A stretch of DNA of 6,142 nt from an uncultured bacterium (lineage in GTDB: Bacteria; Patescibacteriota; Dojkabacteria; CALFHW01): the NCBI GenBank assembly GCA_937876695.1, contig CALFHW010000153.1, positions 1-6,142 on the forward strand. The letters run 5' to 3'. This document shows, piece after piece, positions 151 to 6,142 of this stretch. The notes beneath the pieces are model-generated. The model searched no databases. It was given only the letters and a program-made list of their open reading frames with translations, and was not told the DNA's origin. A program made the position numbers and the translations under genes. Numbering within the stretch: position 1 is the stretch's first letter; each line of letters opens with the position of its first letter.

Positions 151-1236
151 CTACAGAGCCCTCAAGCGAAATATCATAAAGCCTATATTATCTGGGTGCC
201 ATTCCGGTTCTGGTAATCTTTTTCCTTGGCTCCTCCCCAGGTTGTATGCCTGCATTTCTAAGAAGTTAGTCTTCAAGATGCTATCTATTCTTGCTGCCAG
301 TGCACTATTAGTTGGACATTCCACCAGCAAACCAGCCATATATGCTTGTAAACTCTTATTTTCTCTACTCGCCAATAACTTCATTAGCTCCCAAAAACCA
401 TCGGTAGCCATAAACAGAGCTTCTCCATGTTCTAATGTAGTTTCAGCTTTGTAGAAATCTGAGAATCTTTTCTCCGCTTGCAACTTTTCGACAGTAGCAC
501 TAGCTGGAATAACAACACATTTGGAAAGCATGTTCGGTATTTGTAGGCCATCGATATCTGTCTGCCTATGAACTTCAGTCAGTAAGCAAGTTTGACCATC
601 CCTAATAGTTGCAGGAATTTTGTAACCTACTACATCACCTAGGTTCACAAGGGTAACATTTGCTAAACCATCGGGAGTAATTGTAACACCAGCAATCGCC
701 ATAGCCGCAGCGGCAGCGCCGCTCTCATACTGCTCTTTGGCCAGCAGTTTGGCTCTGCGTATTGCCAAATCAACTTCATTTTCATCTGTTAGAGTGACCT
801 CATCTAACTGGCTAGCTGTCAATTGCATCAGTTCTTGCGCCAGACATTGAGCTAATATTCTACTATTATCTCCGTATCCCCCTGCACCATCGCCAACAAA
901 AATAGTAAACTCCGCACCGCCATCCGCTCCCGCAATGACTTTCAAACTAATAGCGTCCTGGTTGGATTTGGCATGCTCAAGAATTGGCCATCTATCGTTG
1001 CCGTACCCCTCATTTCTACCATATGCCGAAGTACAGGTTAGAATCTCTACCCTGACCGCTTTAGTAGTTCCCTCATAGGTGAAATAGATACCGTTCTCGA
1101 TTATATTAGGATTAGTTTCTAGATCAACTTGCTGCGATCTAAATTGGCTAGGATTCTCAACTACGCGCTCCCCAATAGCTTCGATGTGACTAGTTTCCTC
1201 ACCAGCTGTAAAATCTTCAGGGACATAAGCACTCAT
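151..1236 (-). CDS. PP2C-family serine/threonine protein phosphatase
   Basis: The 361-residue product carries the ordered motifs of the metal-dependent PP2C phosphatase fold: N92-Q93-D94, then V-G-D116-G-A-G-G120 (the metal-binding DGxGG motif), L-G-D201 in the middle strand, M-A-T-D279-G (TDG motif), and P-D349-N350-I near the C terminus. The aspartates at 94, 116, 279 and 349 are the expected Mn/Mg ligands or their neighbours. The family removes phosphate from Ser/Thr on proteins and usually opposes a Hanks-type kinase; no kinase is visible here. No membrane segment is present, so the protein should be cytoplasmic. About 55-90 residues precede the first catalytic motif, longer than in minimal bacterial PP2Cs, and their role is not clear. 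The chosen ATG sits 7 nt after an extended -10, with no nearer in-frame start upstream. The next gene downstream begins 18 nt after the stop. Confidence 0.88.
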   Translation of the reverse strand: MSAYVPEDFTAGEETSHIEAIGERVVENPSQFRSQQVDLETNPNIIENGIYFTYEGTTKAVRVEILTCTSAYGRNEGYGNDRWPILEHAKSNQDAISLKVIAGADGGAEFTIFVGDGAGGYGDNSRILAQCLAQELMQLTASQLDEVTLTDENEVDLAIRRAKLLAKEQYESGAAAAAMAIAGVTITPDGLANVTLVNLGDVVGYKIPATIRDGQTCLLTEVHRQTDIDGLQIPNMLSKCVVIPASATVEKLQAEKRFSDFYKAETTLEHGEALFMATDGFWELMKLLASRENKSLQAYMAGLLVECPTNSALAARIDSILKTNFLEMQAYNLGRSQGKRLPEPEWHPDNIGFMIFRLRAL

Positions 1237-3139: not shown

Positions 3140-3170
3140 AAAAAACCCGCGCTTCATGCGCGGGTTTTTT
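3140..3170 (+). terminator. Intrinsic terminator of the rplJL operon
   Basis: A GC stem CCCGCGC/GCGCGGG (3146-3152/3158-3164) with loop TTCAT is flanked by A6 (3140-3145) and T6 (3165-3170), which can extend the stem to 13 bp. This is a textbook rho-independent terminator. The A-tract would let it work on the other strand as well. Confidence 0.95.
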
Positions 3171-3199
3171 GTAGTTCATTTACAGATTTGGCGCTGGGG

Positions 3200-3228
3200 T
3201 TGCACGAATGCAGTATTATTGTTAATAT
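3200..3228 (+). promoter_or_regulatory. Promoter of the toxin-antitoxin module
   Basis: TTGCAC (3200-3205) and TAATAT (3223-3228) are separated by 17 bp. Transcription would start near 3235, about 26 nt before the antitoxin ATG. The -10 overlaps the first palindromic operator, so repressor binding should block polymerase. TATAAA at 3237-3242 is a weaker alternative -10 with no good -35. Confidence 0.6.
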
Positions 3229-3255
3229 GTACATACTATAAACTTATATGTACAT
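3226..3255. promoter_or_regulatory. Paired TGTACA-core palindromic operators of the toxin-antitoxin module
   Basis: TATGTACATA (3226-3235) is a perfect 10-bp palindrome, and ATGTACAT recurs at 3248-3255 within a shared ATATGTACAT. Their centres are 21 bp apart, two helical turns, so two dimers could bind the same DNA face. The first site overlaps the predicted -10 and the second lies in the leader just before the antitoxin start. YefM-family antitoxins are known to bind palindromes with TGTACA cores, which fits the adjacent gene and suggests autoregulation. Confidence 0.7.
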
Positions 3256-3260
3256 TTGCA

Positions 3261-3524
3261 ATGAGCGTGGTAAGAATTTCAGCTTCAAGCTTCAGACAGA
3301 ATATTTTTAAGCTGCTTAATCGCGTAGTGGCTGAGGATAGCAAGATTATTATTCAAAGACCTGGTGGTGACGTGGTAATTCAGAAAGATATGCCTAAAAG
3401 CAGCAAGGATGTATTTTCAGAGGTCCCCTATTTGGACGCCGTCCCCGAAGGGGTTACTGACAAAGATTTGATCTATCATAATCTTGCCGAATGGGGCGAA
3501 GATCCGAATATCTCTATAACATAA
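3261..3524 (+). CDS. Phd/YefM-family antitoxin
   Basis: The 87-residue product begins V-V-R-I-S-A-S-S-F-R-Q-N (3-14), the usual start of Phd/YefM antitoxins, in which a short strand and helix form the DNA-binding dimer. It continues through a helix (15-25) and the strand segment K-I-I-I-Q-R-P-G-G-D-V-V-I (28-40), matching the family core. The acidic C-terminal part (47-87), with Y-L-D, D-K-D-L-I-Y and A-E-W-G-E-D, would be the flexible toxin-neutralising tail. The antitoxin should mask the PIN toxin encoded next and repress the shared promoter through the TGTACA palindromes. The frame is open further upstream to 3156, but that start lies inside the rplL terminator and before the promoter, and the extra residues do not look like the family. 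The toxin starts nine nt after the stop. Confidence 0.85.
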   Translation: MSVVRISASSFRQNIFKLLNRVVAEDSKIIIQRPGGDVVIQKDMPKSSKDVFSEVPYLDAVPEGVTDKDLIYHNLAEWGEDPNISIT

Positions 3525-3533
3525 TAGAAATCA

Positions 3534-3944
3534 ATGAGGATAACCAAAAGTGAAAGCCAAACTGTCTTGTTGGATACACATGTAATTGTACATCTGAACC
3601 AGAACGATCAAAAAAAATTCGGCCCACTGGCGTCTGAAATAGTGAATCATTCATATTTATTGATTCCGCAGATTTCTATATTGGAACTAGATTATCTTCA
3701 CGAAATCGGTCGTATTACAAAGAGGGGGAAGGAATTCGCATCAAATCTAATGTTTTCAATTAATGCCACTTTAGAGATGAGTCCACTGATCGGGCTGGTA
3801 GACTTTTCGCAAAAAATTCAGTGGACCAGAGATCCTTTTGATCGTTTAATTGTGGCTGCCAGTATGTATATGAAAGTGCCACTTTTGACCTCAGACGAAA
3901 ATATTCTGCGTAATTACAAAGACGCGATTGACGAGAGGTTGTAA
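3534..3944 (+). CDS. vapC: PIN-domain ribonuclease toxin, VapC-like
   Basis: PIN-domain toxins are Mg-dependent endoribonucleases that cleave tRNA or rRNA and halt growth when free of their antitoxin. The 136-residue product has the expected acidic residues in order: L-L-D14-T-H at the N terminus, I-S-I-L-E51 in the middle, R-D100-P-F-D103-R-L-I-V-A (the DPxDRLIVA signature) and L-T-S-D121-E-N-I near the end. The length is typical of VapC proteins, and no key residue is missing, so the toxin should be active. It is paired with a Phd/YefM-type antitoxin, a combination often seen with PIN toxins. The intergenic gap is nine nt with no Shine-Dalgarno sequence, so translation is probably coupled to, or weaker than, that of the antitoxin. 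The name is at family level; the RNA target cannot be read from the sequence. Confidence 0.88.
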   Translation: MRITKSESQTVLLDTHVIVHLNQNDQKKFGPLASEIVNHSYLLIPQISILELDYLHEIGRITKRGKEFASNLMFSINATLEMSPLIGLVDFSQKIQWTRDPFDRLIVAASMYMKVPLLTSDENILRNYKDAIDERL

Positions 3945-4061: not shown

Positions 4062-4763
4062 ATGGATTTAGGCCTTTTACAAAACATAGATATTGAAAGA
4101 CAGGCTTTGTTGTTGCTGTTTATGATCCCAGTGGTAGTTACAATTGTAGGTATCACTAGGCATATCGTGGGTATCAAATCGCTGGGTATCTACGCCACAG
4201 TTATACTCACCTTTGCCTTTTATGGACTGGGGCTCAATGGCGACTATGCCGCCAATACCAATATCTTCAACGGCATCCGCTATGGACTCTCTTTCCTGGT
4301 AGTGTTAATTGCAGCCACAGTATTGGGCAGCTCTATTCTCAAGAGCTCCCGCATGCACTACTTCCCAAAAGTTGCTATGGTTATGTCATTTGCTGCAGTG
4401 GCGCTGATCTTGGCGCTGATCTTTGGAGACCTAATCCTCGGCGATCTGCTAGGTAGAAAGGCATTTAGCTCTATAAATGCGCTCGCTCTCGTCATGATCG
4501 CATCAGTTGCAGAGCAATTCACTGCTACCCTATTCAAACTCAAGTGGCGCAAAGCTGTGCTGCTTACTGCGGAGACTACATTTACTGCGCTTATTTGCTA
4601 TGTACTGGTTGCCTGGCCAGCGTTCCAAGATTTAGTTATCAATTACCCATATGTCTTGTTGCTGACCTTTTTGATCAATTATCTAGTGGGTAAATACCGT
4701 GGCCTGAGAATCCTAGAGTTCGTCCGCTTTAGGGAGGTACTTAAAAACGCCGACCCGGATTAA
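4062..4763 (+). CDS. 7TM membrane protein of the transglutaminase/ATP-grasp-associated family, stand-alone form
   Basis: The 233-residue product has about seven hydrophobic segments, near 14-31, 42-58, 74-93, 103-126, 138-152, 164-185 and 194-209, and few charges between them. The C-terminal pattern resembles the 7TM domain usually fused to an inactive transglutaminase and encoded beside RimK-like ATP-grasp genes: V-M-I-A-S-V-A-E-Q-F (144-153), a K-W-R-K turn (160-164), and G-K-Y-R-G-L-R-I-L-E-F-V-R-F-R (210-224). Here the extracytoplasmic transglutaminase part is absent and only the membrane domain remains. The next gene, an ATP-grasp/protease fusion, starts nine nt after the stop, which supports the assignment and a shared job at the membrane. 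The basic tail after 210 would be cytoplasmic and could contact that enzyme. Family membership is judged from pattern and context; the molecular function of the 7TM domain is not established. Confidence 0.75.
   Translation: MDLGLLQNIDIERQALLLLFMIPVVVTIVGITRHIVGIKSLGIYATVILTFAFYGLGLNGDYAANTNIFNGIRYGLSFLVVLIAATVLGSSILKSSRMHYFPKVAMVMSFAAVALILALIFGDLILGDLLGRKAFSSINALALVMIASVAEQFTATLFKLKWRKAVLLTAETTFTALICYVLVAWPAFQDLVINYPYVLLLTFLINYLVGKYRGLRILEFVRFREVLKNADPD
4399..4422 (+). repeat. Perfect 12-bp tandem duplication inside the 7TM gene
   Basis: TGGCGCTGATCT occurs twice in direct succession (4399-4410 and 4411-4422). It encodes the repeated A-L-I-x within the fourth hydrophobic segment (A113-F121). 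Being in frame and hydrophobic, it lengthens or re-registers a membrane helix without breaking the gene. Confidence 0.7.
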
Positions 4764-4772
4764 GTTTTTGTC

Positions 4773-6142
4773 ATGGAACTACTAAAACTCTGGAAAAATC
4801 GCAAGTTAGTCCTAGGCGTCAATGAGCGTAATCTCATGTATATGAGGCGCTACAACAGCGGTAAAGCCAAGAGAATTGCAGACAACAAGCTCCTCACCAA
4901 GAAAGTACTCAGCAAGGCTGGCATACCAACCCCTAGACTTATCGGCAGCATCGCCAGCGTCAAAGATCTTTATGAATTTGATTGGGATAGCCTACCTAGT
5001 AGCTTCGTAATTAAGCCTGTATCCGGCCTAGAAGGCGGAGGTATTGAGATCTTTTATAATCGTGACCAAGCGGGTAATTGGATCAAAGCTGACGGCAGCC
5101 GCTACTCCCTGGAGCAGATTAAAAACCTAGCTGCTGATATTATTGATGGGCGCTATTCGCTGCATAACCAGCCCGATATGGTGTTTTTTGAGGAAAGGAT
5201 ACGCATGCATAAATCGTTTTTGTATTATGCTTACAAGGGGGTACCTGACATCAGGATTGTGGTTTTCAATTCTATCCCGGTAATGGCCATGCTGCGCCTG
5301 CCAACTAAGCAATCCGATGGCAAGGGTAACTTGCAAATGGGCGCTGTAGGCTGCGGTATAGACATATCTACTGGAGTGACCACTACTGCAGTACTCGGCA
5401 AGGACCAACAGATCGAAACGATCCCTACTACTGGGTTAAATGTATCTGGTTTGAAAATCCCTTATTGGAATAAAATCCTAGAGTACGCAATCATGGCCCA
5501 GCGGGCAACAGATCTAAACTTCGCGGGCATCGATTTTTTGGTAGACCGAGATAAAGGGCCGATGATTATCGAGCTAAACGCCCGTCCAGGGCTTTCTATT
5601 CAAATCGCTAACCAAGATGGCCTGCGTTGGAGATTGCGCAAAGCTAGGGGCATTAAGGTGCAATCCATTGAAAAAGGCGTCCGTTTGGGTAAGGATTTAT
5701 TTGGCGGCTCTGTGGAGGAGGACATAGAGAGGATTTCCGGTAAGTATTTAGTAGGGATTTACGAGAATGTCACTTTATTCCCTATCATCAGTTCTGATGA
5801 GATTGTATCGACGCTAGAAGCCGGTAAAGCTATCGATACAAACAACGGGTCCCAAAATAGGACCGAACAGGACCCTAGTGAACATTCTAGCAAAGGCAAG
5901 CACAAAGCGGTCAAACCTCAGTACAAAGAGTTAACCACTAAAGCGAAGATCGATACAGGTGCTGACTCTACCTCAATCGATTTAGGACTTGCGCGTAAAT
6001 TAGGTTACAGCAAGGCGATTGATACTTTCGAGCAGATTGTGGCAGACTTTGAGAGGGCAAATACTGCTGCTAGGCAAGAAGACGCGCCCGAGGTGGAAAC
6101 TCAATCGGCAAAGGCCGATACCTCTGCGTCACAAATAAACGA
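4773..6142 (+). CDS. RimK-like ATP-grasp ligase fused to a retropepsin-like (RimB-type) protease domain, truncated by window edge
   Basis: The frame stays open for 456 codons to the window end. Residues 1-290 form an ATP-grasp domain related to alpha-L-glutamate ligase-like proteins. They show V-I-K81-P and the glycine loop S84-G-L-E-G-G-G90 for ATP, D159-I-R161-I-V-V-F, G-I-D254-F-L, and the Mg-binding I-E267-L-N269-A-R271-P-G. Such enzymes form amide bonds by activating a carboxylate with ATP. After a linker, Y-L-V-G-I-Y-E-N-V-T-L (325-335) resembles the first strand of RimB-like retropepsin folds. K-A-K-I-D394-T-G-A-D398-S-T-S then gives the catalytic D-T-G-A motif of aspartic proteases. 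A roughly 50-residue polar, low-complexity insert (340-386) separates these two parts, and another polar stretch (425-456) runs to the edge. The gene follows the 7TM gene by nine nt without a Shine-Dalgarno sequence. The ligase domain looks complete; the protease domain is cut off. Substrates are unknown. Confidence 0.85.
   Translation, partial: MELLKLWKNRKLVLGVNERNLMYMRRYNSGKAKRIADNKLLTKKVLSKAGIPTPRLIGSIASVKDLYEFDWDSLPSSFVIKPVSGLEGGGIEIFYNRDQAGNWIKADGSRYSLEQIKNLAADIIDGRYSLHNQPDMVFFEERIRMHKSFLYYAYKGVPDIRIVVFNSIPVMAMLRLPTKQSDGKGNLQMGAVGCGIDISTGVTTTAVLGKDQQIETIPTTGLNVSGLKIPYWNKILEYAIMAQRATDLNFAGIDFLVDRDKGPMIIELNARPGLSIQIANQDGLRWRLRKARGIKVQSIEKGVRLGKDLFGGSVEEDIERISGKYLVGIYENVTLFPIISSDEIVSTLEAGKAIDTNNGSQNRTEQDPSEHSSKGKHKAVKPQYKELTTKAKIDTGADSTSIDLGLARKLGYSKAIDTFEQIVADFERANTAARQEDAPEVETQSAKADTSASQIN

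What the first reader, a model, noticed from the sequence alone, without database searches (positions are those of the whole stretch)
4773..6142. Ligase and protease fused in one chain: ATP-grasp amidoligase plus retropepsin-like domain
An apparently intact RimK-like ATP-grasp domain (K81, glycine loop 84-90, E267, N269) is continuous with a domain carrying the D394-T-G-A motif of RimB-type retropepsins. In known gene neighbourhoods the ligase and the protease are usually separate proteins. Fusing the bond-making and bond-breaking activities, next to a membrane protein, suggests a self-contained cycle of adding and removing an amino-acid or peptide tag at the cell envelope.
Basis: partly seen in the sequence, partly recalled or inferred. 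Interest (0 to 1): 0.75.

Follow-up and report, generated by a model that had tools for sequence, protein, structure and literature searches.

The report
Ligase fused to its own eraser
A protein common in tiny Patescibacteria joins an ATP-driven ligase to a retrovirus-like protease and is likely to add and remove an amino-acid tag, probably glutamate, beside a membrane protein; in sampled relatives where the protease site is lost, a peptidase of the tubulin-trimming family is encoded in the same chain or the next gene.

Summary
The window holds residues 1-456 of a 529-residue protein (P0001): an RloC/RimK-type ATP-grasp ligase continuous with an RloA-type retropepsin, 9 bases after a seven-helix membrane gene. 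The missing strands and second motif lie past the window. No assembly error: 39 fusion ORFs in public genome records; 77 of 85 genomes of the Dojkabacteria class match. Ligase-protease fusion as such is published (RimBK, protease first, PMC11957791), as is the rlo operon with separate genes (PMC12239564). Here the order is reversed, the branch is Rlo, and the protease, secreted in Pseudomonas, must share a compartment with the ATP-using ligase.

The stronger finding came from a phylum sample. Of 109 complete relatives, 41 have lost the retropepsin site; all 41 carry a MATCAP/TMCP-family metallopeptidase, 36 fused, 5 in the neighbouring gene. Twelve more have altered substrate contacts; all 12 genomes encode MATCAP, against 12 of 55 genomes with an unaltered site. 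Human TMCPs shorten polyglutamate (PMC10499314), as RimB and RloA do. I conclude: a writer-eraser chain for a likely (poly)glutamate tag, with an exchangeable eraser. Activity and substrate are untested.

The parts
4062..4763 (+). 7-helix membrane protein, RloB-like without the transglutaminase domain (233 aa)
   Evidence: PF14402 49.7 bits over cut-off 25; NF052267 RloB 45.4 bits, cut-off 900; positively charged loops put N terminus outside, C terminus inside
4773..6142 (+). ligase-retropepsin fusion gene, cut by the end of the window (residues 1-456 of 529)
   Evidence: open frame; P0001 full length
4773..5672 (+). ATP-grasp ligase domain, residues 1-300
5013..5042 (+). K81 and glycine loop G85-G90 of the ligase
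   Evidence: K81, G85, G88, G90 invariant in 75; in the wider sample K81, G88, G90 95 of 95 aligned rows, G85 88 of 95
5571..5579 (+). E267 and N269, metal/ATP ligands of the ATP-grasp site (role recalled)
   Evidence: E267 invariant, N269 at least 90% over 75; both 95 of 95 aligned rows of the wider sample; L159, not aligned there, has Thr for N269
5784..5927 (+). low-confidence linker, residues about 338-385, with an insert found in close relatives
   Evidence: pLDDT under 50 at 343-367 and 369-379; insert short or absent in most rows shown
5736..6142 (+). first part of the retropepsin domain (residues 322-456; domain ends at 529 outside the window)
   Evidence: PF05618 22.4 bits on P0001, cut-off 27; relatives over the cut-off, e.g. 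P0104 43.7; fold match to RloA for relative L005
5946..5963 (+). K392-I-D394-T-G-A: catalytic motif and the lysine equivalent to RloA K46
   Evidence: K392, D394, G396, A397 invariant in 75; RloA residues from PMC12239564

Best explanation
This is one chain that carries an RloC-type ATP-grasp ligase and an RloA-type retropepsin, and it is likely to add an amino-acid tag, probably a short (poly)glutamate chain, to a target at the inner face of the membrane and to cut that tag off again. Shown by sequence: both active sites are kept; a 7-helix RloB-like gene lies directly upstream in most relatives; 37 of 39 relatives have no membrane helix in the fused chain by hydropathy. Inferred: because the ligase needs ATP, the protease works in the cytosol, not in the periplasm as RloA is predicted to do in Pseudomonas. 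Inferred: the tag is glutamate, since the lysine and two arginines that contact polyglutamate in RloA are kept here and in most relatives with an intact site. Inferred: the 7-helix protein docks the enzyme or is its target, through its cytosolic GLRLxEYxRFR tail. Inferred: the eraser is exchangeable; where the retropepsin died a MATCAP-type carboxypeptidase took over, while the dead retropepsin fold stayed, perhaps to stimulate the ligase as RimB stimulates RimK.
For: Conserved ligase site (in the wider sample K81, E267 and N269 are kept in 59 of 59 intact-site and 36 of 36 lost-site rows that aligned, 14 of 109 rows not aligned). K392, D394, R481, R504 and G514 invariant over 75; R481 and R504 are 23 apart, as are RloA R114 and R137, whose alanine mutants have reduced activity and fail to complement (PMC12239564, which also lists K46, R114 and R137 as polyglutamate contacts). 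In the wider sample 56 of 68 intact-triplet rows keep a basic residue at all three places. Best fold match RloA. 7-helix gene directly upstream: 37 of 39 by rule (in L013 it overlaps the fusion gene, in L033 the neighbour is too divergent), 91 of 109 in the phylum sample, median gap 2 bases in those 91. No transmembrane segment by hydropathy in 37 of 39 fusion ORFs (one weak hit each in L018 and L047). Charge pattern places the 7-helix C terminus in the cytosol. Eraser swap: 41 of 41 lost sites have MATCAP in the chain or next gene; the 12 rows with an intact D[TS]G but altered contact residues lie in genomes that all encode MATCAP (12 of 12, 11 on the same contig within about 8 kb), against 12 of 55 genomes with an unaltered site (2 of 12; 10 of 43). 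HExxxH plus EGLA in 34 of 36 fused MATCAP domains. In Pseudomonas, deleting rloB or rloC fully rescues low-salt growth, and partly the other defects, of the triple rloA mutant (PMC12239564, passage of section 11), as expected if the ligase makes what the protease removes.
Against: No activity, substrate or localisation is measured for any fusion. Twelve of 68 rows that I count as intact (one clade) lack the basic residue at one to three of the three contact places, so the polyglutamate reading does not hold for every member. Three Paceibacteria/Parcubacteria-type chains hold an intact DTGA and a MATCAP-like domain together (L015 and L018: 44-45 bits, cut-off 27; L043 cut at its start, seen only in sequence), and 12 of 55 genomes with an unaltered site also encode MATCAP, so the two erasers are not exclusive and MATCAP may be an old member of the locus rather than a late replacement. 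Independent switches are only 4 on supported branches, too few for a significant sign test (p 0.125; 3 pairs by the first rule). In Chloroflexota the retropepsin is fused to the membrane protein behind a hydrophobic start and should lie outside (L042, L045, L046), so the side of the membrane is not fixed across the wider family. The published RimBK fusion cut polyglutamylated RpsF but showed no ligase activity on RpsF (PMC11957791).
Confidence: 0.58

Rival explanations
1. The protease domain is mainly an allosteric stimulator, and the enzyme makes free poly-alpha-glutamate (an osmolyte or storage polymer) that the 7-helix protein handles; proteolysis only trims or recycles the polymer.
For: RimB raises RimK ATPase about fourfold, and polyglutamate was detected only with both present (PMC11957791 section 8); a retropepsin fold without its site is kept in 41 of 109 relatives, which suggests a non-catalytic role; the triple rloA mutant is sensitive to low salt (PMC12239564).
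Against: The catalytic triplet and flap stay intact in 68 of 109, and another peptidase is present in all 41 where they are lost, so peptide cleavage seems to matter; no polymer exporter was looked for.
Confidence: 0.22
2. It is a RimBK-like ribosome modifier acting on ribosomal protein S6.
For: Same two enzyme classes; the locus lies behind rplJ-rplL in the window and in L002 (Pfam) and, judged by eye, in other Dojkabacteria loci; one of nine S6 proteins read ends in Glu (L184).
Against: S6 of 8 of 9 Dojkabacteria genomes read ends in another residue, and none of the 9 has a long acidic tail (9 of 10 genomes had a hit); the protease is RloA-like; a 7-helix partner lies upstream in most relatives, which is not part of rim as published.
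Confidence: 0.05
3. The fusion is a processing enzyme: the retropepsin matures another protein (or the chain itself), and its link to the ligase is only for co-expression.
For: Substrates are unknown; a long flexible linker could be a self-cleavage site in the window's close relatives.
Against: The linker insert is short or absent in most rows shown; replacement of the retropepsin by an unrelated carboxypeptidase family fits removal of a C-terminal tag better than site-specific maturation.
Confidence: 0.1

Closest known systems
rlo operon of Pseudomonas aeruginosa (RloA secreted retropepsin, RloB inactive transglutaminase + 7TM, RloC ATP-grasp), PMC12239564
   Same: Same three modules in one locus; retropepsin with DTGA and the polyglutamate-contact residues; RloC-like ligase; 7-helix RloB part
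   Different: Here ligase and protease are one chain and so on the same side of the membrane; the window's 7-helix protein lacks the extracellular domain, and in some relatives a PKD domain stands there instead (L023)
RimBK hybrid (Desulfotalea psychrophila DP2392; mostly Flavobacteriales, Rhodobacterales), PMC11957791
   Same: RimK-like ligase and retropepsin in one chain; protease shown to cut polyglutamylated RpsF
   Different: Opposite order (protease first), Rim branch; no 7-helix partner in the parts of the paper that I saw
MATCAP/TMCP metallocarboxypeptidases (PF08014; KIAA0895L, KIAA0895), PMC10499314
   Same: The family fused to, or next to, the ligase in relatives with a dead retropepsin; human members shorten polyglutamate chains written by TTLL ligases
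   Different: Not in the window protein; the bacterial members here are untested; here in one chain with the ligase

Membership tests
ATPgrasp_ST / RloC-like ligase (PF14397, TIGR02291) | Pfam gathering score | tested here: met
   221.1 bits, cut-off 31.4
ATPgrasp_ST / RloC-like ligase (PF14397, TIGR02291) | TIGR02291 cut-off | tested here: not met
   261.6 bits, cut-off 314.2: related, not a strict member
Bacterial retropepsin (PF05618, RloA/RimB) | D-T-G-A motif, flap and second hydrophobic-hydrophobic-Gly motif | tested here: met
   P0001 residues 394-397, 474-481, 511-514
Bacterial retropepsin (PF05618, RloA/RimB) | Pfam gathering score | tested here: not met
   P0001 22.4 bits, cut-off 27; relatives P0016, P0039, P0104 pass
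RloA secreted peptidase | fold of solved RloA | tested here: met
RloA secreted peptidase | signal peptide, secretion | tested here: not met
   domain lies behind the ligase in one chain; no hydrophobic segment in 37 of 39 relatives
RloA secreted peptidase | cleaves polyglutamate as a dimer | not testable with these tools
   only the contact residues are conserved
RimBK hybrid | protease domain N-terminal to RimK | tested here: not met
   ligase first, protease second
RloB | 7TM domain | tested here: met
   PF14402 49.7 bits, cut-off 25
RloB | extracellular inactive transglutaminase domain | tested here: not met
   233-aa protein, no transglutaminase family matched
MATCAP/TMCP (relatives, not the window protein) | PF08014 score and HExxxH + EGLA | tested here: met
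   L073 195.2, L087 141.8, L091 151.6, L071 116.9 bits, cut-off 27; motif in 34 of 36

The most novel reading that the evidence does not exclude
Patescibacteria carry a modular writer-eraser enzyme in which a polyglutamate ligase is welded to its own eraser, and evolution has swapped an aspartic protease for a MATCAP-type metallocarboxypeptidase in the same slot; this would be the bacterial counterpart, and a possible source, of the eukaryotic TTL/TTLL-MATCAP tubulin-tail cycle.
Probability: 0.35. Interest if true: 0.86.

Novelty: new variant of a known kind. Interest (0 to 1): 0.72.

Why it matters
[quoted passage not shown] Here writer and eraser travel in one chain across much of a phylum of tiny bacteria, which gives an expression target to find the substrate of the rlo pathway, a pathway tied to osmotic tolerance, biofilm and cell shape in Pseudomonas. 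The swap of a retropepsin for a MATCAP-family peptidase is a natural experiment: it says that peptide removal is the part that must be kept, and it gives a functional hint for the bacterial PF08014 (QEGLA) proteins.

Tried and rejected
Assembly artefact or chance motif: rejected (of the 120 homologs listed out of 4792, 112 have DTGA and 4 DSGA, with two arginines 23 apart and the Gly motif; 2 more, P0086 and P0101, have KTDTGA; 2 without motif, P0108 and P0117, are MATCAP forms). Ribosomal S6 as target: C termini read in 9 genomes give little support; one, L184, ends in Glu. A shared acceptor at the C terminus of the 7-helix protein: its tails vary in length and last residue. The window contig could not be extended: no genome is held and I had no way to the 116-kb contig of P0001; so whether a MATCAP gene follows in the window's own genome is unknown. 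The 50 rows shown for the whole model are ATP-grasp chains, so the protease domain was folded alone, from a relative. No dimer could be modelled. No Rfam match at gathering score and no tRNA in the window.

Limits of the swap count. It depends on my rule (D[TS]G plus at least 8 flap residues). They had no MATCAP in the fetched pieces, which would have broken the pattern; a whole-genome search then found PF08014 in 12 of 12 and in 12 of 55 genomes with an unaltered site. Genomes are incomplete, so absences are uncertain. One of the 41 rows holds a masked stretch and is classed by the letters that can be read. 'Adjacent' was sought only inside the fetched pieces (about 4.5 kb). The Fisher p of 8.6e-24 ignores kinship and is not used as evidence. 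The Iyer 2009 amidoligase paper, which I recall as predicting this gene neighbourhood, is not held. Searches behind 'not in print here'; the library lacks most subscription journals.

Full report
What is in the window. The + strand frame 4773-6142 codes for 456 residues and runs off the end. Its first 300 residues are an ATP-grasp ligase of the 'alpha-L-glutamate ligase-like' group (PF14397 221.1 bits; TIGR02291 261.6 bits against a cut-off of 314.2). From residue 322 a retropepsin begins; the window stops before its flap. A protein search found the same protein in full, P0001, 529 aa (sequence), whose last part holds the flap (SSHGRSFR), DRS and the motif VIIG. The upstream gene (4062-4763, gap 9 bases) is the 7-helix part of RloB (PF14402).

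Not chance, not an artefact. Among the 120 listed homologs (of 4792), 112 have DTGA and 4 DSGA with two arginines 23 apart and the Gly motif, 2 more have KTDTGA, and 2 lack the motif (both MATCAP forms). A scan of genome records gave 69 loci, of which 39 ORFs carry both domains; L011 is a MATCAP form and L043 and L044 are cut at their start. All 39 hold K[IVM]D[TS]GA. Titles name, among others, Dojkabacteria (WS6), Parcubacteria, Paceibacterota, Moraniibacteriota, Kerfeldbacteria, Roizmanbacteria, Shapirobacteria and Microgenomates. In the class of G001 (the genome of L002, titled Dojkabacteria) 77 of 85 genomes match, and by my reading of the table 72 of the 77 have an open frame of 421 aa or more.

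Topology. Hydropathy finds no membrane segment in 37 of 39 fusion ORFs; L018 and L047 have one weak hit each. The 7-helix proteins (40 aligned, the window's included; L036 and L039-L042 left out) have basic loops on alternate sides that put the N terminus outside and the C terminus inside; most end in a GLRLxEYxRFR-like stretch. Some partners have a signal-like start and a PKD domain outside (L023, PF18911 70.3 bits). The ligase needs ATP, so the fused protease should be cytosolic. In Pseudomonas RloA has a signal peptide and RloC is predicted cytosolic (PMC12239564, passages). In three Chloroflexota loci the retropepsin is fused instead in front of the 7-helix protein, behind a hydrophobic start (L042, L045, L046; sequences; PF14402 and aspartyl-protease families in all three, PF05618 over its cut-off in two), which should place it outside. 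The eraser has thus been attached to either partner.

The eraser swap. I took the strong ligase rows as 111 loci (five held before: L002, L004, L023, L070, L072; and L073-L178). Of 109 complete ORFs (L099 split and L142 truncated were dropped), 68 keep D[TS]G and the flap; 41 do not: 32 lost both, 4 kept the triplet but lost the flap, 5 kept the flap but have Asn for Asp. RloA D48N is a catalytically inactive control in PMC12239564. MATCAP was scored with a profile built here and checked with Pfam on four fused examples (L071, L073, L087, L091; 117-195 bits). Result: 36 of the 41 have MATCAP fused, 5 have it in a neighbouring gene, none lacks it; of the 68 intact, none has it fused, 7 have it next door and 61 do not within the fetched piece.

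A test that could have broken it. The 12 rows with an intact triplet but altered contact residues had no MATCAP in the fetched piece. Searching their whole genomes found PF08014 in 12 of 12, in 11 on the contig of the fusion gene and within about 8 kb of it. Of the 55 genomes that hold the 56 rows with an unaltered site, 12 have PF08014 anywhere (2 of 12; 10 of 43). So 53 of 53 rows with a lost or altered site have MATCAP in the chain, beside it or in the genome. Outside this sample L071 and P0117 agree, while L015, L018 and L043 have an intact retropepsin and a MATCAP-like domain together. On a ligase tree the fused-and-dead state needs 3 changes (at least 2 on starred branches), the dead-with-adjacent state is one clade (99) and the 12 altered rows are one clade (95). 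Under the strict rule 4 independent pairs on starred branches all go the expected way or tie, sign test p 0.125: suggestive, not significant. 34 of 36 fused MATCAP domains keep HExxxH and EGLA. In the class of G164, 50 of 60 genomes have PF08014, and none of the 14 control genomes.

Why this points to glutamate. RimB and RloA cut polyglutamate (PMC11957791: abstract, passages, sections 5, 8, 13, 14 read; PMC12239564: abstract, passages, sections 8 and 12 read). TMCP1 (MATCAP) and TMCP2 shorten polyglutamate chains on tubulin and counter TTLL ligases to different degrees, and use an HExxxH site (PMC10499314: abstract and passages). Two unrelated peptidase families whose known members remove the same kind of tag replace each other behind the same ligase. 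That is inference, not a measurement.

Mechanism, marked by step. Shown: one chain, two conserved sites, membrane partner, swap. Predicted: cytosolic side, glutamate as tag, membrane-bound or membrane-adjacent target. Speculative: the dead retropepsin stays because it stimulates the ligase, as RimB does for RimK (about fourfold in ATPase, PMC11957791 section 8; whether a dead RimB also stimulates was not in the sections that I read).

Known and new. Known: RimBK, protease first (12% of 2226 rim-bearing accessions, PMC11957791 section 13); the rlo operon with separate genes. New as far as searches show: the reversed RloC-RloA fusion of Patescibacteria and its MATCAP alternative. The rlo paper reports 96% of its RloB hits as proteobacterial; here the 7-helix part is found directly upstream in 91 of 109 Patescibacteria rows.

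Neighbourhood. Of 56 downstream genes scanned (69 listed and for L015; 13 that looked unrelated left out), 30 match RimK-like ATP-grasp, 5 MATCAP, 2 GNAT acetyltransferase, so the fusion is often followed by further modification enzymes.

Noticed in passing
3156-3944: A Phd/YefM antitoxin (weak, 23.2 bits, cut-off 29.8) and PIN-domain toxin (31.1 bits) pair sits between rplL and the 7-helix gene; in L002 rplJ-rplL are followed directly by the 7-helix gene, and by eye in most of the other Dojkabacteria-like loci listed (not L031, L033).
   Followed up: partly
151-1236 (- strand): PP2C-like phosphatase, below the Pfam cut-off (20.3 of 24 bits).
   Followed up: no
1358-1930: 190-aa protein with a hydrophobic start and a Pro/Thr-rich stretch, no Pfam or NCBIfam match.
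   Followed up: no
L042:2545-3717, L045:127-1227, L046:2749-3843: Chloroflexota: hydrophobic start, retropepsin and 7-helix RloB part in one chain, ligase in the next gene (L045, L046).
   Followed up: partly
L051:2-1579, L054:5917-7398: Woesearchaeota chains with retropepsin first and a RimK-like ligase second, an archaeal RimBK-like order.
   Followed up: partly
L055:5818-7665: Vibrio sinus chain of 615 aa with two retropepsin-like stretches (36-195 and 490-601) and a hydrophobic start.
   Followed up: no
   Followed up: partly
C termini of 40 7-helix proteins: GLRLxEYxRFR-like stretch just after the last helix in most, on the predicted cytosolic side.
   Followed up: partly
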